A stretch of DNA of 50,757 nucleotides. Origin: Bacteroidetes bacterium RIFCSPLOWO2_12_FULL_35_15. Lineage in GTDB: Bacteria; Bacteroidota; Bacteroidia; 2-12-FULL-35-15. This document shows, one piece after another, positions 17,024-42,061 of this stretch (within the stretch, counting starts at the first letter, position 1; every line of letters starts with the position of its first letter). The position numbers and the translations under genes were made by a program. The notes under the pieces are model-generated. The model worked only from the letters and a program-made list of their open reading frames with translations, did no database searches and was not told the origin of the DNA. The stretch covers positions 1 to 50,757 of the forward strand of contig MEPB01000109.1 of assembly GCA_001769385.1 (NCBI GenBank), in the 5' to 3' direction.

Positions 17024-17140
17024 TTTAACATGCTTTATTGATTCCATTATTATATCACCCGATTGGGATTTTGAATGGTTTGATTTCTTTTTTTTCTACC
17101 TATTTTTTGATTGAAACTGGGGCATTTGGTAATCTTTTCT

Positions 17141-17836
17141 TTACCAGGGTATATTATAATGCGCTGTATCTCCCATGCCCAAATAAATACTATCATTAAT
17201 AACACTGTGCACACCACCTTTTGTTTTATCAAATGTTATGTGCCATAACCCCATTGCATGCCCTCCAAAATTTAAATAATTATTTGGGGGGGAAGGAAAA
17301 AGATTAGAAGGCCAGTTTAATTTATATATCATTTCCGGTCTATAAGAGTGAAAAATTCTTTGCTCCAATGTAATTGTAAAAGTATCTGGTGAAATGATTA
17401 TTGCCGCTGGGGGTAAATGAAGTACACAAATGTTAAAAGTCGCATTAAGGCCAATCTGATTAAAAACCGACATATGACTCTTTTCAATTTCAAGTGGCCC
17501 AACACCAATAAATGTATAATCAGGCGTATAATGACTTTCGATGAATTCAGCGTAGGAATATTTACTACTTGAATGGATGTCAATATCTTTGAAAATAAAA
17601 TCTCCGCTTGTATCTGTGGTATAGGAATAGGATGTTACCTCCACATTATTATGCCCCTTTTCGTGTCTTTCTAATAATTTTACTTCCACATTTGCAAATC
17701 CTTTACCAGTGCAGTCATTACGTACATTTCCCCGAATGGTTTCTTTTTTAATATAATCTGCTTCTTCATCCTTTTTGCAGGTTGTGAAAAAAAGAGTAAA
17801 TATCAGCAATAGAAATATGTATTTAGGTAGGTTCAT
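17141..17836 (-). CDS. tandem lipoprotein paralogue 3 (carboxypeptidase-regulatory-like fold)
   Basis: This is a 231-residue precursor with signal peptide MNLPKYIFLLLIFTLFFTTC; the Cys at about 20 is the probable lipidation site, followed by KKDEEAD, an acidic stretch seen in Bacteroidota surface lipoproteins. Residues ~32-75 (IRGNVRNDCTGKGFANVEVKLLE) look like a carboxypeptidase-D regulatory/transthyretin-like beta-sandwich. The family is shared with the two genes upstream: the first ~130 residues and the last ~30 (GVHSVINDSIYLGMG) are conserved, while ~135-195 is variable. It is last in the operon and 16 bp from its neighbour. It points toward phoH in convergent orientation. Function unknown. 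Confidence 0.8.
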   Translation of the reverse strand: MNLPKYIFLLLIFTLFFTTCKKDEEADYIKKETIRGNVRNDCTGKGFANVEVKLLERHEKGHNNVEVTSYSYTTDTSGDFIFKDIDIHSSSKYSYAEFIESHYTPDYTFIGVGPLEIEKSHMSVFNQIGLNATFNICVLHLPPAAIIISPDTFTITLEQRIFHSYRPEMIYKLNWPSNLFPSPPNNYLNFGGHAMGLWHITFDKTKGGVHSVINDSIYLGMGDTAHYNIPW

Positions 17837-17852
17837 TTTGGTAATTTTTTCT

Positions 17853-18557
17853 TTACCAAGGTATCGTATAACTTGTATCTGCTCCCATATCTAAATAAAT
17901 ACTATCATTTATAACACTATGCACACCATTTTTGGTTTTATCGAGGGTGATATGCCACCATCCCATGGGATAATTACATACATTAACATAACTGTATATA
18001 CCTAAAGCCCCAATATAGAAAAATCTTGGAAAACCTGTTTCTTCATAAACTCGGTTGGGTTCGTAATAATGAAGTGTCCTTTGCTGTATATTAATCGTAA
18101 ATGTATCGGGTGCGATCGATGTAACATTCTGAGATAATTGCAGAATTAGAAGTTTAAAAGTTGCTGATATCCCAATTTGATTAAAAATAGACATATGGCC
18201 CTTTTCAATTTCAAGTGGTCCAATGCCATAAAGAAAATACTCAGGAGAATAATGACTTGCTATATACTCTGCGTAGGTATATTTACTGCTTGAATGGATG
18301 TCAATATCTTTGAAAGTAAAATCGCCAAGGTTATCAGTAATGCAGGTATATGAATTTACATCCACATTGTTGCGGCCTTTTTCATATCTTTCCAATAATT
18401 TCACTTCTATATTTGCGAACCCTTTACCTGTGCAATTATTTCGCACATTTCCCCGAATGGTCTCTTTTGTAATATAATCTGCTTCATCATCTTTCTTGCA
18501 GGTTGTGAAAAAAAGAATAAATATCAGCAATAGAACTATGTACTTAGACAGGGTCAT
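17853..18557 (-). CDS. tandem lipoprotein paralogue 2
   Basis: This 234-residue lipoprotein precursor has the lipobox region FFTTC, then KKDDEAD. The IRGNVRNNCTGKGFANIEVKLLE beta-sandwich segment and the SSKYTYAEYIASHYSPEYFLYGIGPLEIEKGHMS block are almost identical to paralogue 1. The variable middle is unlike the others (FYIGALGIYSYVNVCNYPMGWW). It ends VHSVINDSIYLDMGADTSYTIPW. The spacing is 17 bp from paralogue 1 and 16 bp to paralogue 3. I do not assign a function. Confidence 0.8.
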   Translation of the reverse strand: MTLSKYIVLLLIFILFFTTCKKDDEADYITKETIRGNVRNNCTGKGFANIEVKLLERYEKGRNNVDVNSYTCITDNLGDFTFKDIDIHSSSKYTYAEYIASHYSPEYFLYGIGPLEIEKGHMSIFNQIGISATFKLLILQLSQNVTSIAPDTFTINIQQRTLHYYEPNRVYEETGFPRFFYIGALGIYSYVNVCNYPMGWWHITLDKTKNGVHSVINDSIYLDMGADTSYTIPW

Positions 18558-18574
18558 TTGGTAATCTTTTTCTT

Positions 18575-19270
18575 TTACCAGGGTATAGTGTAACTTGTAT
18601 CTGCGCCCATACCTAAATAAATACTATCATTAATAATGCTATGTACACCATTTTTGGTTTTATCAAGTATGATATTCCATAAACCCATATGATAATTACC
18701 CCAGTTCGGACTAGATTGTGAACCAGGCATTAAATTTCGGGGAAATCTATAAAGTTCCCAAATCCTGTTAGGTTCGTATCTATGCATAACTCTCTGTTCA
18801 AGTTTTAGTGTAAAAGTATCTGGTGGAGTAATTATAGTTCCTGATGGAAGTAAAAATATACACAATTTAAAAGTGGCTGAAATACCAATTTGATTAAAAA
18901 TAGACATATGGCTCTTTTCAATTTCAAGTGGACCAATGCCATAAAGAAAATAATCAGGAGAATAATGACTTGCTATATACTCTGCATAGGAATATTTACT
19001 GCTTGAATGGATGTCAATATCTTTAAATGTAAAATTACCAATGTTATCAGTAATACAGGTATATGAATTCACTTCCACATTGTTATGGCCTTTTTCATGA
19101 CTTTCTAATAATTTTATTTCCACATTTGCAAATCCTTTACCTGTACAATTATTTCGCACATTTCCCCGAATGGTCTCTTTTTTAATATAATCTGCTTCTT
19201 CATCTTTTCTACAGGTTGAGAAAAAAATCGCGGATATTATTAAAAAAAACATGCATTTTAATAGGGTCAT
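18575..19270 (-). CDS. tandem lipoprotein paralogue 1
   Basis: This 231-residue lipoprotein precursor (MTLLKCMFFLIISAIFFSTC, then RKDEEAD) is the first of the three copies in transcription order. Its ATG overlaps the TGA of the upstream sorting-domain ORF by 4 bp (ATGA), so the two should be translationally coupled. It has the same regulatory-like beta-sandwich and conserved C-terminal block as its paralogues. The variable region reads ELYRFPRNLMPGSQSSPNWGNYHMG. The signal peptide is the least conserved part compared with copies 2 and 3, which resemble each other more closely there. Function unknown; surface exposure is inferred from the lipobox and acidic +2 region. Confidence 0.8.
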   Translation of the reverse strand: MTLLKCMFFLIISAIFFSTCRKDEEADYIKKETIRGNVRNNCTGKGFANVEIKLLESHEKGHNNVEVNSYTCITDNIGNFTFKDIDIHSSSKYSYAEYIASHYSPDYFLYGIGPLEIEKSHMSIFNQIGISATFKLCIFLLPSGTIITPPDTFTLKLEQRVMHRYEPNRIWELYRFPRNLMPGSQSSPNWGNYHMGLWNIILDKTKNGVHSIINDSIYLGMGADTSYTIPW

Positions 19271-19554
19271 TTGGTAATAATGATTTTTGAATATTCTGAG
19301 TTTTTTTTATTAATCACCTTCAAAAGGTAAATGCCATTTTCTAAATATTGTAAGTCAAATTCATTAGTTTGCTTGTTATTAATTACTTTTGAAAAAACAA
19401 TTTTCCCTGCCAAATCGCTAACAATCACTTTTGAGTTAATCCCTTCGTCTTTATTTTCCACAACAATTAAACCATTACTTGAATTAGGATAAATTTTCAG
19501 GTTGTTGGCAGAAAAAGAGATTTCTTTATAATTTTCGCTTTTGATATTAATCAA
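19267..19554 (-). pseudogene. orphan T9SS type A C-terminal sorting domain
   Basis: The ~80 codons contain only the sorting-domain fold: NLKIYPNSSNGLIVVE, VIVSDLAGKIVFSK, LENGIYLLKV and the typical end YSKIIITK. No signal peptide or cargo domain precedes it; the frame is blocked by a TAA a few codons upstream of the TTG used as nominal start, and a terminator-like hairpin sits directly upstream. It is probably the tail of a deleted secreted protein whose promoter and body are gone. Its TGA stop overlaps the ATG of lipoprotein 1, which suggests the lipoproteins were once downstream in that protein's operon. Confidence 0.7.
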
Positions 19555-19588
19555 AACCGATTCAGTAAATTAATTAAGCTCCTTTCAA

Positions 19589-19624: not shown

Positions 19625-19822
19625 TATTTTCAGAAACATTATGTTATAAATCATATTTATGTGTTTAATCAACTGTCCCACAATCACCTGCAAATCATGA
19701 CTATAAACATGTTTTATAAAAGAGGTTTTAATGATATTTGTTCGATTTACACTCAAAATAATAAATGATGAAATAGCCAAGCATTGAACGATCTACAAAT
19801 CAGAAATGAAAATGTGGCAGGG

Positions 19823-19843
19823 CAAAGAGCCTGTGGCTCTTTG
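19823..19843. repeat. 9-bp perfect hairpin upstream of etfB
   Basis: CAAAGAGCC (19823-19831) pairs with GGCTCTTTG (19835-19843) around TGT, 50 bp before the etfB start. No U-tract follows. It may be a 5'-UTR stem-loop or a repeat fragment. Confidence 0.5.
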
Positions 19844-19892
19844 AGCCAGTAAGTGCGTAAGATGTGGCAATTAAAAAACAAATTATCTACAC

Positions 19893-37032: not shown

Positions 37033-39321
37033 CTATTTTAAAATCTGAAGTTTTTTAAACTGATCAGCATTTATTTTTAGAACATAGAATCCTTCGGATA
37101 ATTCGGAAATACTCACCGTTTCAATTTTGTTGGTTGAAATAATAGTTTTTATTTCCTGGCCCAATGCATTGTATAAACAAATTGTATTTTCTTTTTCAGT
37201 GCTGTTAAATTGTATTGTAAAATACTCACAAGCCGGATTAGGATATACTTTTATCTCATTTTCAGCGGCTCCATTTTCATTGATGCCTGTTAAACAATTG
37301 GATGCATTAAATGTTGGCAGACTTGGAATAAAAGTTCCTGTTCCGTCCGGGCACCTGCCAACAGAAACGTCTCCAACCTGGGCTCCAAAGTTTATACTAT
37401 CTAATATGTTACCTGAAATGTCACTCAAAACAAGTTGCTCTCCGCCTGATAATAATTTAAAATTACAATGAAGATAGGAGGATGTGGTTGCATTCTCATC
37501 GGCCCAAACTACCAGGTAACCCTGCGGCTGAATGATTGCATTGTCGGGGAAAGCAAATTTTGTTAGGTTGAGGGAATTATCAGTCAGATACAAGCCAAAC
37601 ATGTTCAAGGAGCTTGATGTATTATTGTAAAATTCTATCCAGTCTTCATGCTGACCATTTTCATTTGTATTATAACCCTGGTTGGCGGCCAAAAATTCAT
37701 TGATCCTGACTTGTCCCGAAGCAGCAGTCTGAACATTCGACTGTAACGTATAAAATTCATGTTCCGCTCGTTCCGGTGAAAACATTCCGGCAGTATTATT
37801 TTCAGCATAAATATAATATTGCAGCACCGGACCATTCATTGTAAATGTGGCTCCATAAATATTATCGCCTGCTGTGCCATCATTATTTAAGCCATCATCA
37901 GTCATTAAAATTCGAGTGAATTTATCCGTGTTCACAAAACGATAACCCAGATAAACTGAATTTGCATTTGTGTTTGTGACCTGAGCCGCAATACTGATCG
38001 TGCTATTTATACCAGGCGTTAAATTGCTTGGGGTTATCGCAGAAATAGTTGGAGGTACAGCCGTAAAATCAGCCAAAGATTGTAAATAAGAAACTCTTGC
38101 ACTCATCAGCGTACTAATACCCGGCACAACATAGCTCCCAACAGTAGTGTTACTTGTCATGGCTGATTGAAACTGAGCATACGTAAAAAATTTATTTGTA
38201 TCTGCTACAATTGCAGTATCAATTAAGGTCTGCAATTGTGAAGCAGTCGTTTGATAACTATTGGATACAAACATTTCATTCATAATGGTTCGCATGTGGG
38301 CAATATACATTCGTTTATACAGGACATTATTCATCACATCTTTTATCAATGGCCAGTAAACATCGGCAGAATGAATGGTAGGTGACAATTGCTGCATGTT
38401 GGCAACCGTTAAGCTTCCCATACTGGAATTTGAACTCCCGACAAAAGGAAATCCACCCAAAGACATATTCAGATCCCAAATTACCGGATTGAAACGTTTG
38501 GTATTATCTTTATATAAATAATAATTCTGAGCAAATACTCCGGTGTAACTATCCAGATTAATTAATACATTATTAAATGCCAACATCCAGATTGCTCTGT
38601 CCATATCCAGTACAGAGGAAATGTTTGATGAAAAATTAGTGACGGTATCACAAAGTCCAACCAGATCATTCCATCCATTTGTTGATTTTATTTCATAATA
38701 ATTAAAATAATTTGAACTATCGGTTGTGTTATATTTTAAATTGCTTTTTGTAGCCGGACCCGGATTTACAATTGGATTACATTTGATCAGGGTATTTTGC
38801 GAAGAAAAAAAGTGATCGGAACAAAAGGACTTACCAATTGGTTCAGCATTTGAATACAATCCAACATAAGCTCCGTTAACAAAAAGCTGAGCAAAGTTGG
38901 ATCGTGGGCAATCCATATAATTCTGCAAAATGTTATAGGAAAGAACTTCCCTGATCATGGAAGGATCGGCATACCCATTACCAAGTTTAATATCTTTTAT
39001 GCTTTGATAGGATTGACTCTTAAATTCATCCAACGAAATGTGTATTGGATTTTTTAAATACGTTGAGTTGTAGGAACTGTTTCCTTTGTACTTAACACCT
39101 ACGCTATCGAACTGCACTCCATTGATTTTCACTAATGAAGCCATTATATAACTGTCAAACCCATTTTTTGCGGTATCCATTTGATAATCCCAATCGGGTT
39201 GCGTAAAACTAATTTCGATCTTTTGAATGGTAGTTAAATCGTAAAAAGTAGTTTGGCTCTGCGCAGTTGCTATTATAAATAATGCAAAAATTACAAGTAT
39301 CAGGAGTTTGCTTTTAATCAT
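37033..39321 (-). CDS. exported CotH kinase with lamin-tail and T9SS sorting domains
   Basis: This is a 762-residue precursor with a signal peptide to about residue 20. The CotH kinase domain spans about 25-420 and has GVKYKGNSSY, ADPSMIREVLSYNILQNYMDCPRSNFAQLFVNGAYVGLYSNAEPIGKSF and the metal/catalytic region NPVIWDLNMSLGG with Asp283. CotH of Bacillus phosphorylates spore-coat proteins. An Ig-like segment follows, then a lamin-tail domain (about 535-655: INEFLAANQGYN...EDWIEFYN...LYLTDN), and a T9SS type A sorting domain ends the chain (VYPNPACEYFTIQF...LSEGFYVLKI). The protein is thus exported across the outer membrane and anchored or released there. It stands 12 bp after the carbohydrate-binding-like gene. 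Confidence 0.9.
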   Translation of the reverse strand: MIKSKLLILVIFALFIIATAQSQTTFYDLTTIQKIEISFTQPDWDYQMDTAKNGFDSYIMASLVKINGVQFDSVGVKYKGNSSYNSTYLKNPIHISLDEFKSQSYQSIKDIKLGNGYADPSMIREVLSYNILQNYMDCPRSNFAQLFVNGAYVGLYSNAEPIGKSFCSDHFFSSQNTLIKCNPIVNPGPATKSNLKYNTTDSSNYFNYYEIKSTNGWNDLVGLCDTVTNFSSNISSVLDMDRAIWMLAFNNVLINLDSYTGVFAQNYYLYKDNTKRFNPVIWDLNMSLGGFPFVGSSNSSMGSLTVANMQQLSPTIHSADVYWPLIKDVMNNVLYKRMYIAHMRTIMNEMFVSNSYQTTASQLQTLIDTAIVADTNKFFTYAQFQSAMTSNTTVGSYVVPGISTLMSARVSYLQSLADFTAVPPTISAITPSNLTPGINSTISIAAQVTNTNANSVYLGYRFVNTDKFTRILMTDDGLNNDGTAGDNIYGATFTMNGPVLQYYIYAENNTAGMFSPERAEHEFYTLQSNVQTAASGQVRINEFLAANQGYNTNENGQHEDWIEFYNNTSSSLNMFGLYLTDNSLNLTKFAFPDNAIIQPQGYLVVWADENATTSSYLHCNFKLLSGGEQLVLSDISGNILDSINFGAQVGDVSVGRCPDGTGTFIPSLPTFNASNCLTGINENGAAENEIKVYPNPACEYFTIQFNSTEKENTICLYNALGQEIKTIISTNKIETVSISELSEGFYVLKINADQFKKLQILK

Positions 39322-39333
39322 TTTTCTTCCGCA

Positions 39334-40341
39334 TTATTCAATGATCAATTTTAGATTGGTACTATTTTTTTTGCTGTTCAAAATAGTCAGAAAATAAACG
39401 CCCGATGTTAAGGTCTCCTTTTCGATCCTCAGTTCTGCCGCATTATGATTGTTGTAGGAGCGGACAATCCTACCCGTGATATCCAGTATGTAAACCGAAT
39501 GTAAAATATCAATATCGTTAAAATGCAAAATTGTAAAATCAGTTGCAGGATTAGGAAATAATTTCAGTTCGTTCATTTCTGTATGTTCAGATATGCCGGC
39601 AATGGCGCTACATGAATAGCAGGTCGAGAAACATACCACTTCCAAAACGGTATCATGCGGAACCAGAAAATTTCTATTTCCGGAAGTTGCACAACTTGCA
39701 GGCACAGTTTCGTATTCCGAAATTAAATTACCGTTGATATACTTAAATTGGCAACCGGCTGCATTTGTATCAATATAGGCGATGTATTCATATACCGTAT
39801 CATTAAATGAATAGAGAATGTTTTTTGCAGTATTCCAACCCTGCCAGGTTCCGGCAACATGTGGTTTTTCAGCACTTACTGTTTGATACAGCATATCTAC
39901 TTTAAAGCGTATCAGGTTAAACCCTGCCGGTGCATTTCCGGCAAATCTGATTGCCCCCACAAATGTTGTATCATTTGCCAATGAATCAACATACAACCAT
40001 CTGTTGTCATTAAAATTATATCCTACACGTGCTTCAACCGGAACAAACTCTGCCTCATAAAACTGATCGCCATTAACGAATTTGTATTCATACTTGGCAA
40101 AGGCCGGAATATTCACTACAATACTGAATATATTAGTATCTGCTGTTTCCCGGACAAGTGAAGTTGTATTTGGTGCCCAATCACCACCGGCAAATCCAGC
40201 AAGTGTTTGAAAGTCACCTGATACATGCATTCCGAGTGAACTAACCGGAATACCGGTCATGTCCACAGCAAATTTCACTTTTTTTGCGAATGCAAAAGAG
40301 CTAATTGAAAGTAATAGTGATACGATAATAATTTTTTTCAT
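39334..40341 (-). CDS. T9SS-exported protein with two carbohydrate-binding-like repeats
   Basis: This is a 335-residue precursor. The signal peptide (MKKIIIVSLLLSISSFAFA) precedes two related ~110-residue repeats. Repeat 1 is VKFAVDMTGIPVSSLGMHVSGDFQTLAGF...YEYKFVNGDQFYEAE; repeat 2 is IRFKVDMLYQTVSAEKPHVAGTWQGWN...CQFKYINGNLISEYETV. The pattern (VDM, hydrophobic strand, G-D/T-F/W, FKYINGN) resembles starch-binding CBM20/48-type or SusE/F-like modules. A Cys-rich linker (CFSTCYSC) leads to a sorting domain (LKLFPNPATDFTILHF...LTSGVYFLTIL). It lies between the sulfotransferase and CotH genes with 12-19 bp spacings. Its likely role is to bind a glycan or glycoprotein target for those enzymes; this is inference. 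Confidence 0.8.
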   Translation of the reverse strand: MKKIIIVSLLLSISSFAFAKKVKFAVDMTGIPVSSLGMHVSGDFQTLAGFAGGDWAPNTTSLVRETADTNIFSIVVNIPAFAKYEYKFVNGDQFYEAEFVPVEARVGYNFNDNRWLYVDSLANDTTFVGAIRFAGNAPAGFNLIRFKVDMLYQTVSAEKPHVAGTWQGWNTAKNILYSFNDTVYEYIAYIDTNAAGCQFKYINGNLISEYETVPASCATSGNRNFLVPHDTVLEVVCFSTCYSCSAIAGISEHTEMNELKLFPNPATDFTILHFNDIDILHSVYILDITGRIVRSYNNHNAAELRIEKETLTSGVYFLTILNSKKNSTNLKLIIE

Positions 40342-40360
40342 CAGACAAAATTTTAATTTC

Positions 40361-42061
40361 TTATTTAATTAAAGATATTCTTTTTACTATAGAACCTGAA
40401 TTTTCGCCAGTTAATTTAATGATATAAATTCCATTTTCAAAAGAAGAAAGGTCGATTGTAGATGCATTTATTTCTTTTACAACTAATTTTCCGACTGCAT
40501 CAAAAACCAGCACCTCATAATTTGTTCCTATCCTAGATGATGATTCAATTGTAATTATTCCGCTTGTTGGATTCGGGTAAATGATAATATCGCTTACACT
40601 ATTTTCATTAATCCCAGTAGCCGAAAATGTAAAATTAAATCCCGGTGAATATTCGTAAACACATCCATTGCTATCGGTAATGCGTACAATATAAATTCCA
40701 GTTTGCGTGGCATTGTAGTCCTGACTGGTTGCCCCTGCTATTAAAGAACCATTCAGATACCATTGATAGGTTGTAGCTGATGTAGCACTTAAGGTATTAC
40801 CCGCAAGTGAAATTGAAGGGATTGCAGGAGGTGGATTGTTGATGTAACAATCGCTGTAACGAAATGCTTTTGCACAGGCACCTGTTAAAGTTTTTGACCA
40901 TAATAATGTTCCGGTAGGTCCAAACTCTTTTATATAGCCCGAAATACCCATACTCACAAGGGTATTTCCATTTGGCAATTGTTGTGACCCACCTTCATTA
41001 CTATTGTATCCACCGGCAAGTATCCGCTTGGTGTATGAAGAAGGTAAATAGGCAGAACCAGGGGTTAATGAATAATTATAACCGGAAACAGGGGGAGCAA
41101 TAAAATCAACACAAGAAGCATTACTTGGGCTCGTAATTCCTTTGTTATTATATCCTGCCAAATTTCCGGCATTCGGACACCCTTCCGGGATCCAATGAGC
41201 ATCATGCACGACATTGAGTATTTTTGTCCCTGTAGCACCATAAGCTGCGGGATTTCCCCAACGATACAAAATATCACCACCTTTTCCTGAGTTGCCACCC
41301 GAATGAGTTGCTGCTTCTGCCGTTGTTGTGCTATGGTCAATTACATATATTTCACTTAAATTATGCGAACTAAAGGTTACCTGATCAAGGATCGGATTAT
41401 AGTCTACTCCGTTCATATGCAGCCAATCTTTTTGCGCTTGATAGTTTATATTTAATAGTTCCGGATGATTTACAATGGATGTCTGATAATTTGCAGCTGA
41501 AGCATTTGTATTTTGAACCAAATGATCCCAGGCATGCCATTCCCAAACAACGTTTCCGGTAGTGGCGCCTGTTGGTTGCACTTCCACAATTTTATCAGGC
41601 CACATCGTGTTCGAAAAAGTTGAACATCCTGCTGCGGTTACCTGTGTCCCGGTTTTTGTTTCGTAAGCAATCAATAATACATTTCCGTTTGGCATGGGAC
41701 AAATGTCGTGGTGGGTGCAATAAGCCGTTGTTGAATAAACAAAATCCCACACTACATTTCCATTGTAATCCAGTTTCTGTACCTCTCCGCAAATAGGTCC
41801 TCCGGTAAATGAATTTCCGGTTCTTTCAATTGCTCTCCAAAGAAAACCTCCCGGCATTAAATAGGTAGAGTAACCTGTTTTTTTCGCTGTAGCATCTGTC
41901 CATGTATGATAAACAGTGCCATTGGTATCAACTAATTGTGCGGTTGAAGTAGTTTTTATGCTATACAAGGTGTAACCGGGATATTGTTGCGCCATCATGC
42001 TTGTGAATACGAAAAAGCTGATGATCATCAAAAGCTTTGCTGTTATGTTTGTTTTTTTCAT
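40361..42061 (-). CDS. T9SS-exported aryl-sulfate sulfotransferase-like protein
   Basis: This is a 566-residue precursor with a signal peptide to about 24. The body is a six-bladed propeller (about 30-400) of the ASST/arylsulfotransferase family: VYHTWTDATAKKTGYSTYLMPGG, a histidine-rich CTHHDICPMPNGNVLL, VVWEWHAWDHL, DWLHMNGVDYNPILDQVTFSSHNLSEIYVID, and VVHDAHWIP. These His motifs match the donor-binding and transient sulfo-His sites of bacterial ASST. An Ig-like segment (about 415-480) and a T9SS sorting domain (IIIYPNPTSGIITIESS...FENGIYIIKL) follow. ASSTs move sulfate between phenolic esters without PAPS, so they can work outside the cell. It is first in the enzyme block, 90 bp after the LytTR regulator. 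Confidence 0.88.
   Translation of the reverse strand: MKKTNITAKLLMIISFFVFTSMMAQQYPGYTLYSIKTTSTAQLVDTNGTVYHTWTDATAKKTGYSTYLMPGGFLWRAIERTGNSFTGGPICGEVQKLDYNGNVVWDFVYSTTAYCTHHDICPMPNGNVLLIAYETKTGTQVTAAGCSTFSNTMWPDKIVEVQPTGATTGNVVWEWHAWDHLVQNTNASAANYQTSIVNHPELLNINYQAQKDWLHMNGVDYNPILDQVTFSSHNLSEIYVIDHSTTTAEAATHSGGNSGKGGDILYRWGNPAAYGATGTKILNVVHDAHWIPEGCPNAGNLAGYNNKGITSPSNASCVDFIAPPVSGYNYSLTPGSAYLPSSYTKRILAGGYNSNEGGSQQLPNGNTLVSMGISGYIKEFGPTGTLLWSKTLTGACAKAFRYSDCYINNPPPAIPSISLAGNTLSATSATTYQWYLNGSLIAGATSQDYNATQTGIYIVRITDSNGCVYEYSPGFNFTFSATGINENSVSDIIIYPNPTSGIITIESSSRIGTNYEVLVFDAVGKLVVKEINASTIDLSSFENGIYIIKLTGENSGSIVKRISLIK

What the first reader, a model, noticed from the sequence alone, without database searches (positions are those of the whole stretch)
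17141..19270. Lipoprotein triplet with conserved ends and a variable middle
Three tandem copies keep residues 1-130 and the last ~30 almost unchanged but differ strongly at about 135-195. Such a pattern suggests duplication with gene conversion at the ends and diversifying selection in an exposed loop, as in surface antigens or receptors.
Basis: partly seen in the sequence, partly recalled or inferred. Interest (0 to 1): 0.55.

Follow-up and report, generated by a model that had tools for sequence, protein, structure and literature searches.

The report
Orphaned lipoprotein triplet beside lost lipase
Three neighbouring surface-lipoprotein genes share nearly identical first domains but carry anciently different middles, and they look like left-over specificity partners of a secreted lipase-like enzyme whose gene has been deleted here, much like the tandem protector lipoproteins that staphylococci keep beside a secreted lipase toxin.

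Summary
Genes A, B and C (17141-19270, minus strand) keep residues 23-130 and the last ~35, while 50 of 64 columns vary at 135-195 (permutation 0/10000). Recent conversion between A and B over the first domain is supported. Diversifying selection is not: omega is below 1 where it can be estimated. A's middle is 70% identical to a copy in another species but 44-45% to its own neighbours, so the middles are old types and the ends are homogenised within the genome.

In relatives the lipoprotein start overlaps by 4 nt the stop of a ~1070-aa T9SS-sorted alpha/beta-hydrolase. Here only the last ~90 codons of that gene remain (19267-19554) and no close copy was found elsewhere in the genome. Of 54 such hydrolases, 29 have an adjacent predicted lipoprotein gene, against 1 of 42 other T9SS cargo genes. 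The closest known system is S. aureus TslA lipase with tandem TilA immunity lipoproteins. Best reading: cognate-lipase partners, most likely immunity, orphaned here. The main rival is an activator role: Riean_0653, of a lipoprotein family found beside several of these hydrolases, is required for haemolysis in Riemerella.

The parts
18575..19270 (-). lipoprotein copy A, 231 aa; its start codon overlaps the stop of the hydrolase relic by 4 nt
   Evidence: ORF; lipoprotein signal pattern MTLLKCMFFLIISAIFFSTC|RKDEEAD
17853..18557 (-). lipoprotein copy B, 234 aa
   Evidence: ORF; 73% identical to A
17141..17836 (-). lipoprotein copy C, 231 aa
   Evidence: ORF; 67% identical to A
18686..18868 (-). 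type-specific middle of A (residues 135-195)
   Evidence: 70% identical to L013 copy 2 and 44-45% to B and C
17964..18155 (-). type-specific middle of B (residues 135-198)
   Evidence: 56% identical to the copy in G012 (L016) and 33-44% to A and C
17252..17434 (-). type-specific middle of C (residues 135-195)
   Evidence: 45% to A, 33% to B
19267..19554 (-). relic of the secreted hydrolase gene: its last ~90 codons, coding the T9SS C-terminal sorting domain, with no N-terminal part
   Evidence: Por_Secre_tail 44 bits, cutoff 27; 57% over 90 aa to the C-terminus of the L013 hydrolase, E 3e-28, ~101 bits; at most 52 bits to any other protein in the loci then held
17110..17140 (-). stub of a further repeat unit after copy C: the string that precedes the copies (ATTACCAAATG) recurs here
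   Evidence: repeats D6 and D10; junctions read
17024..19580 (.). segment (relic + A + B + C) absent between phoH and the etfB-like gene in the closest relative G024; ends approximate
   Evidence: G024 (PhoH 98% identical) has the two genes ~0.2 kb apart with the same terminator and no array; the name etfB is from recall

Best explanation
A, B and C are surface lipoproteins that are dedicated partners of a T9SS-exported alpha/beta-hydrolase of the PGAP1/DUF676 lipase type. Domain 1 (residues ~30-132, transthyretin-like) is a shared stalk. The second beta-sandwich domain (133-231) carries a type-specific middle that I infer contacts the cognate hydrolase. The genes arose as tandem copies at the 3' end of the hydrolase gene. 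Recombination keeps domain 1 and the C-terminal hairpin alike within a genome, while distinct middle types persist across species. Most likely the lipoproteins are immunity proteins that block cognate or related lipases at the cell surface, as TilA does for TslA. In this genome the hydrolase is reduced to its sorting signal and three orphan partners remain. Shown: gene anatomy, A/B conversion, cross-species types, genetic linkage, relic. Inferred: hydrolase binding, immunity, lipid substrate.
For: 4-nt overlap of stop and lipoprotein start at 7 of 7 hydrolase or hydrolase-fragment junctions read in L013 (1), L014 (3), L015 (2) and the window (1). Adjacent predicted lipoprotein at 29 of 54 hydrolases vs 1 of 42 control T9SS genes, p=1.9e-8; 46 of the 54 carry the type A sorting domain. 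21 of 40 in loci fetched after the idea formed, p=1.2e-7, and 8 of 15 vs 1 of 42 within the same 12 genomes, p=3e-5. Paralogous small ORFs within 14 of 54 loci scanned. Synonymous breaks in L013, L058, L110, L119, L126, L130. The N-terminal tree rejects A + L013 copy 2 (AU 1e-37); the middle tree rejects A+B+C (AU 0.019). Relic closest to the L013 hydrolase. Surface-export motif. SprA translocon in the genome, 2614 bits. PGAP1 26.5 bits (cutoff 24.3) and DUF676 22.7 (20.3) in distant hydrolases; GxSxG invariant in 13 of 13 cores.
Against: No binding, lipase or killing data were found for any member. Riean_0653, of a lipoprotein family found beside several of these hydrolases, is needed for haemolysis and restores it in trans (PMC7881567); that fits an activator better than pure immunity. 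That family, NF052634, has such a hydrolase beside it or within ~1.5 kb in only 8 of 29 gene clusters. 25 of 54 hydrolases had no adjacent lipoprotein by my predictor. The genome keeps one distant hydrolase on contig C74 (76.5 bits) with its own adjacent 226-aa gene that the predictor also flags, doubtfully, so the window's copies are not the only candidate partners in this genome. The hydrolase structure model failed (pLDDT 31) and the three close members scanned match no Pfam lipase model. The middle-tree test is modest (73 columns). Synonymous breaks are not significant for A/C (84/200), B/C is marginal (11/200), and none is seen in L053, L104 or L105.
Confidence: 0.47

Rival explanations
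1. The lipoprotein is an activator, chaperone or surface tether needed for the hydrolase to work, not an immunity protein; extra copies serve different hydrolase variants.
For: Riean_0653 mutants of Riemerella have greatly reduced haemolysis, restored by the gene in trans, while the recombinant protein is not haemolytic (PMC7881567 abstract and passages); the lipoproteins at L058 and L104 belong to that NCBIfam family (121.8 and 161.7 bits, cutoff 57). In Enterobacter, Tli both activates and neutralises the Tle lipase (PMC10294624).
Against: Copies persist where no close hydrolase was found in the genome: the window, G004 and, with a broken frame at a contig edge, G012. Several copies beside one hydrolase are not expected of a foldase. 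Whether Riean_0653 itself lies beside a hydrolase was not tested, and its family is often found without one.
Confidence: 0.3
2. An ordinary multigene lipoprotein family whose middle is simply less constrained; the hydrolase link is a by-product of shared operons for lipid or nutrient use.
For: omega below 1 where estimable; domain 1 has the transthyretin-like fold also seen in solved Bacteroides DUF3823 proteins; most NF052634 clusters lack the hydrolase (21 of 29).
Against: Control T9SS genes rarely have adjacent lipoproteins (1 of 42). A relaxed middle would not be more conserved across species (70%) than the first domain (52%).
Confidence: 0.18
3. Surface antigen or receptor triplet under diversifying selection by phage, host or protist.
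For: Predicted surface lipoprotein; part of the variable segment is a low-confidence stretch of the model (mean pLDDT 63 at residues 181-190).
Against: No dN/dS excess seen; middles are old and shared across species; the antigen idea does not predict the hydrolase linkage.
Confidence: 0.05

Closest known systems
TslA phospholipase and TilA (DUF576/Lpl) tandem immunity lipoproteins of Staphylococcus aureus (PMC10730906, abstract and passages)
   Same: Secreted lipase encoded beside lipoprotein partners; several non-identical tandem copies; copy number varies; copies shuffled by recombination across a conserved stretch; copies also kept away from the toxin in immunity islands.
   Different: Exported by T7SS in Gram-positives, with helical Tla partners. 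Here a T9SS sorting domain and a lipoprotein of transthyretin-like plus beta-sandwich domains; no sequence relation was tested. Immunity is proven there, only inferred here.
Tle lipase and Tli lipoprotein immunity of T6SS (PMC10294624, text section part 1 of 2)
   Same: Lipase plus cognate lipoprotein partner; Tli can both activate and neutralise.
   Different: Injected by T6SS; Tli is an ankyrin-repeat protein.
rAID orphan immunity arrays of gut Bacteroidales (PMC12247911, abstract)
   Same: Arrays of immunity-like genes kept apart from their effector.
   Different: rAID arrays are recombinase-associated and hold T6SS immunity genes such as SUKH proteins; here the neighbours are phoH and an etfB-like gene, and no search for a recombinase was run.
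TANFOR polymorphic toxins of Bacteroidetes (PMC7073777, outline and section 9)
   Same: Toxin-immunity pairs in Bacteroidota with a suggested T9SS link.
   Different: TANFOR proteins are large toxins with an N-terminal TANFOR domain whose export by T9SS is speculation there; most hydrolases here carry the T9SS sorting domain themselves (46 of 54).

Membership tests
T9SS cargo (the upstream hydrolase) | type A C-terminal sorting domain | tested here: met
   Por_Secre_tail in L014, L015 and the window relic above cutoff, TIGR04183 42.2 bits in L013; across the wider family 46 of 54 C-terminal ends match at E <= 0.01; the other 8 include two cut by a contig edge and two in broken genes
T9SS cargo (the upstream hydrolase) | secretion by the T9SS shown experimentally | not testable with these tools
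   none
PGAP1/DUF676-type alpha/beta-hydrolase | Pfam score above the curated cutoff | tested here: inconclusive
   Met in distant members L053, L058 (PGAP1) and L062 (DUF676); not met in the close L014 and L015 proteins, which are linked to them by profiles A5/A6
PGAP1/DUF676-type alpha/beta-hydrolase | GxSxG nucleophile motif | tested here: met
   G, S, G invariant in 13 of 13 aligned cores; Asp and His of the triad not assigned
Surface-exposed Bacteroidota lipoprotein | lipobox cysteine followed by an export signal C-X-K-(D/E)2-X | tested here: met
   A CRKDEE, B CKKDDE, C CKKDEE against the Capnocytophaga signal in PMC5080379; other Bacteroidota use other signals, and localisation itself is not testable here
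TslA-TilA-like lipase/immunity system | lipase gene adjacent to lipoprotein gene(s) | tested here: met
   29 of 54 vs 1 of 42
TslA-TilA-like lipase/immunity system | lipoprotein binds and inhibits the lipase and protects cells | not testable with these tools
   none
TslA-TilA-like lipase/immunity system | T7SS export and Tla helical partners | not tested
   no search for T7SS or Tla-like genes was run
BSAP-5i family immunity protein (NF053773) | score above 150 bits | tested here: not met
   16.3 (A) and 12.8 (B) bits, N-terminal part only
CarboxypepD_reg (PF13620) | score above 32.3 bits | tested here: not met
   14.8-19.8 bits; the fold of domain 1 still matches the carboxypeptidase D TTR-like domain 5aq0, Z 8.9, rmsd 2.2 over 79
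Polymorphic toxin system | variable C-terminal toxin domains exchanged with orphan cassettes | tested here: inconclusive
   L014 has C-terminal hydrolase fragments of 244, 285 and 124 aa, two of them followed by a lipoprotein, but their variable part is not shown to be a toxin domain

The most novel reading that the evidence does not exclude
Bacteroidota use the T9SS as an inter-bacterial weapon that delivers membrane-attacking lipases. They protect themselves with tandem, recombination-shuffled surface immunity lipoproteins whose middle segment sets specificity, and species such as the window's keep or acquire the lipoproteins alone as an orphan immunity island against their neighbours' lipases.
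Probability: 0.3. Interest if true: 0.82.

Novelty: new variant of a known kind. Interest (0 to 1): 0.6.

Why it matters
Whether the T9SS takes part in killing between bacteria is open: the TANFOR paper calls it speculation (PMC7073777), and the main text of a 2023 review of T9SS effectors has no occurrence of 'lipase' or 'antibacterial' (PMC10202324, term counts). A widespread lipase-lipoprotein gene pair (hydrolase profile in 75 of 395 sampled genomes of the window's class) with tandem, mosaic partners gives a concrete, testable candidate, and explains the triplet as a specificity array rather than an antigen.

Tried and rejected
Diversifying selection on an exposed loop: rejected as the main reading because omega is below 1 wherever it could be estimated and the middles are shared across species. 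Recent transfer of A's middle from another species: not favoured, since synonymous sites between A and L013 copy 2 in the middle are near saturation (0.72). CarboxypepD_reg, BSAP-5i and TIGR04134 membership: all below cutoff. PADLOC: no match for five proteins scanned. PDB by sequence: none for the lipoprotein profile. Foldseek: best rows are Gram-positive pilins with TM about 0.3, so shared beta-sandwich architecture only. The hydrolase structure model failed (pLDDT 31) and was not searched. The genome's distant hydrolase on C74 was considered as a current partner of the window's lipoproteins; it is only distantly related (76.5 bits) and has an adjacent 226-aa gene of its own that the predictor flags as a lipoprotein, doubtfully, so it is not excluded. 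Polarity of the island (gain in the window or loss in G024) could not be settled: of the 30 phoH loci held, only G024's showed the etfB-like gene within the flank.

Limits of the adjacency test: the lipoprotein predictor was loosened after I saw a first count on the hydrolase loci and before I looked at the controls; it recognised 11 of 11 known members. I recalled Fisher counts for the subsets by hand and tested them. Hydrolase regions were taken in E-value order, leaving out one contig-edge fragment and merging neighbours; 10 earlier loci plus L013 and L014 were added. 8 of the 54 hydrolase frames lack a detectable sorting domain. Controls were T9SS genes of 700-1300 aa in listed order; two eligible rows from G028 were passed over and one control gene was cut by its region's edge.

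Full report
What is there. The finding covers three intact genes on the minus strand, A (18575-19270), B (17853-18557) and C (17141-17836), each coding a ~231-aa lipoprotein. Variable columns are 29 of 108 at residues 23-130, 50 of 64 at 135-195 and 12 of 35 at 197-231; no permutation in 10000 reached the observed clustering. The signal peptide is variable too (12 of 22), which the finding overlooked.

Ends and middle. Synonymous differences between A and B are 0.57 per codon inside codons 129-205 and 0.19 outside, and none of 200 shuffles gave a stronger break. B and C share a low-divergence stretch at codons 6-37 (11 of 200 shuffles). A and C show no significant break (84 of 200). So recent conversion touched mainly A and B. 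In the middle dN is 0.56-0.62, but synonymous sites are saturated or nearly so and omega is 0.18 (B/C) and 0.39 (A/C) where finite, so a dN/dS excess is not shown.

The middles are old types. Homologues are rare and patchy: full-length close matches occur in 4 of 36 genomes of the genus, the window's included (G000, G027, G012, G004), in two more species (L014, L015), and more distantly in L094 and L095. Over residues 21-130 A is 87% identical to B, 81% to C and 52% to copy 2 of L013 (G027). Over 136-196 A is 44% and 45% identical to B and C but 70% to L013 copy 2; B is 56% identical to the G012 copy. Trees agree: the first part rejects A + L013 copy 2 (AU 1e-37) and the middle rejects A, B, C as a group (AU 0.019, only 73 columns, with low support for where B and C fall). 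Synonymous sites between A and L013 copy 2 are near saturation in the middle (0.72), so this is not recent transfer. The middle is thus not hypervariable in itself. Distinct, long-lived types sit between ends that are homogenised within each genome.

Structure. The predicted model of A (pLDDT 84.7) has a transthyretin-like domain at residues ~30-132 (carboxypeptidase D TTR-like domain 5aq0, Z 8.9, rmsd 2.2 over 79; DUF3823 proteins Z 6.7-8.4) and a second beta-sandwich at ~133-231 (Z about 6, which may mean only a common arrangement). The A/B conversion break (codons 129-135) lies at this domain boundary. All three copies carry C-X-K-(D/E)2-X after the lipid cysteine, the surface-export signal defined for Capnocytophaga (PMC5080379 passages).

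The missing partner. In L013, L014 and L015 the lipoprotein start overlaps by 4 nt the stop of a large T9SS-sorted protein. L015 has two full pairs. L014 has one 786-aa protein with a lipoprotein, then 244- and 285-aa C-terminal fragments each followed by a lipoprotein, then a 124-aa fragment. The window has the same overlap, but only the last ~90 codons of that gene survive (19267-19554). This relic is 57% identical over 90 aa to the end of the L013 protein (about 101 bits) and scores at most 52 bits against any other protein in the loci then held. No close copy of the protein was found elsewhere in the genome, which is 99.4% complete and encodes the SprA translocon; a distant family member lies on contig C74 (76.5 bits). 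A and B are preceded by ATTACCAAATGACC, the last bases of that gene plus the start, C by the same with small changes, and the string recurs after C; L013 shows the same after its second copy. The copies therefore most likely arose next to the hydrolase gene. In the closest relative, G024 (PhoH 98% identical), phoH and the etfB-like gene are ~0.2 kb apart with no array. Whether the window gained the segment or G024 lost it is not settled.

What the partner is. A profile of its core finds 75 of 395 sampled genomes of the class at E <= 1e-20. Distant members pass Pfam cutoffs for PGAP1 or DUF676, and the GxSxG motif is invariant in 13 of 13 cores. Three close members scanned match no lipase model by themselves and the structure model failed, so 'lipase' is an inference by relatedness.

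Linkage test. Among 54 hydrolase genes in 52 loci, 29 have a directly adjacent, same-strand predicted lipoprotein gene of 100-330 aa; among 42 other T9SS genes, 1 does (Fisher p=1.9e-8). Of the 54, 46 show the type A sorting domain at the C-terminal end (the same number with Pfam). For loci fetched after the idea formed the count is 21 of 40 (p=1.2e-7), and within the same 12 genomes 8 of 15 vs 1 of 42 (p=3e-5). Paralogous small ORFs occur within 14 of the 54 loci scanned (in L093 the two each follow their own hydrolase, and not every small ORF is a proven lipoprotein). The lipoproteins are of at least two kinds, one with a transthyretin-like first domain and one related to DUF6252 / NCBIfam Riean_0653; of ten scanned, one passes the CarboxypepD_reg cutoff (L097) and two the DUF6252 cutoff (L104, L119), and three match nothing. 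Of ten tandem sets tested, synonymous breaks with p of 9/200 or less were found in the window (A/B), L013, L058 (all six pairs), L110, L119, L126 and L130, and not in L053, L104 or L105; L110 and L119 have a different layout from conserved ends and variable middle. The reverse test is weaker: of 29 clusters of the Riean_0653 family in 24 genomes, 8 have such a hydrolase beside them or within ~1.5 kb (five; three from coordinates; one further cluster, G492:C32, was judged only from the list).

How it most likely works. The closest known system is the S. aureus TslA phospholipase and its tandem TilA lipoproteins: TilA binds the lipase domain at 14.2 nM and protects cells, and the related genes vary in number and are shuffled by recombination (PMC10730906 passages). 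By analogy I take the window's genes as orphan immunity-type partners, with the middle setting specificity. The strongest evidence for a rival is PMC7881567 (abstract and passages): transposon mutants of Riean_0653 have greatly reduced haemolysis, the gene restores it in trans, and the recombinant protein is not haemolytic. That fits an activator, or a dual role as reported for Tli (PMC10294624). I did not establish whether Riean_0653 lies beside a hydrolase.

Literature. Eight full-text searches listed no paper whose title or abstract start describes a T9SS-exported lipase with lipoprotein immunity; only the listed rows and the passages cited were seen.

Verdict. Observation confirmed; first interpretation partly supported; a new variant of a known kind (secreted lipase with tandem lipoprotein partners), by a different export route, with the function inferred.

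Noticed in passing
window 19776-19872: About 100 bp between the phoH terminator and the etfB-like gene here that did not align to G024's interval, with a short palindrome (CAAAGAGCCTGTGGCTCTTTG); a 92% identical ~70-bp match lies on contig C68, so it may be a small repeated element.
   Followed up: partly
window 37033-42061: Two places with T9SS sorting-domain-like matches in neighbouring minus-strand genes (at 37069-37266 and 40403-40594), separate from this finding.
   Followed up: no
L014:29-2804: The locus starts with a frame whose first ~45 residues read as a PurD-like protein (recognised from memory) running on into other sequence, and the hydrolase frame after it is only 786 aa; possible insertion or assembly artefact.
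   Followed up: no
L053:3631-6374: Four tandem lipoproteins downstream of a hydrolase in G028, with a separate 121-aa frame in between whose end resembles a sorting domain; conserved first half and divergent second half, but no significant synonymous break.
   Followed up: partly
L210/L232 (G652), L206/L230 (G221), L228 (G666), L224 (G634): Clusters of Riean_0653-family lipoproteins, tandem in G652, G221 and G666, with no hydrolase in the ~1.5 kb flanks held; their partners, if any, are unknown.
   Followed up: no
L126:6377-7767: Two lipoproteins nearly identical at DNA level over the first ~146 codons and strongly divergent at codons 147-213: a very recent conversion.
   Followed up: partly
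L173:2686-5878 (G000:C74): The genome's distant T9SS hydrolase (829 aa) has a 226-aa gene 22 bp upstream whose start fits the lipoprotein pattern, though it could also be an ordinary signal peptide.
   Followed up: partly
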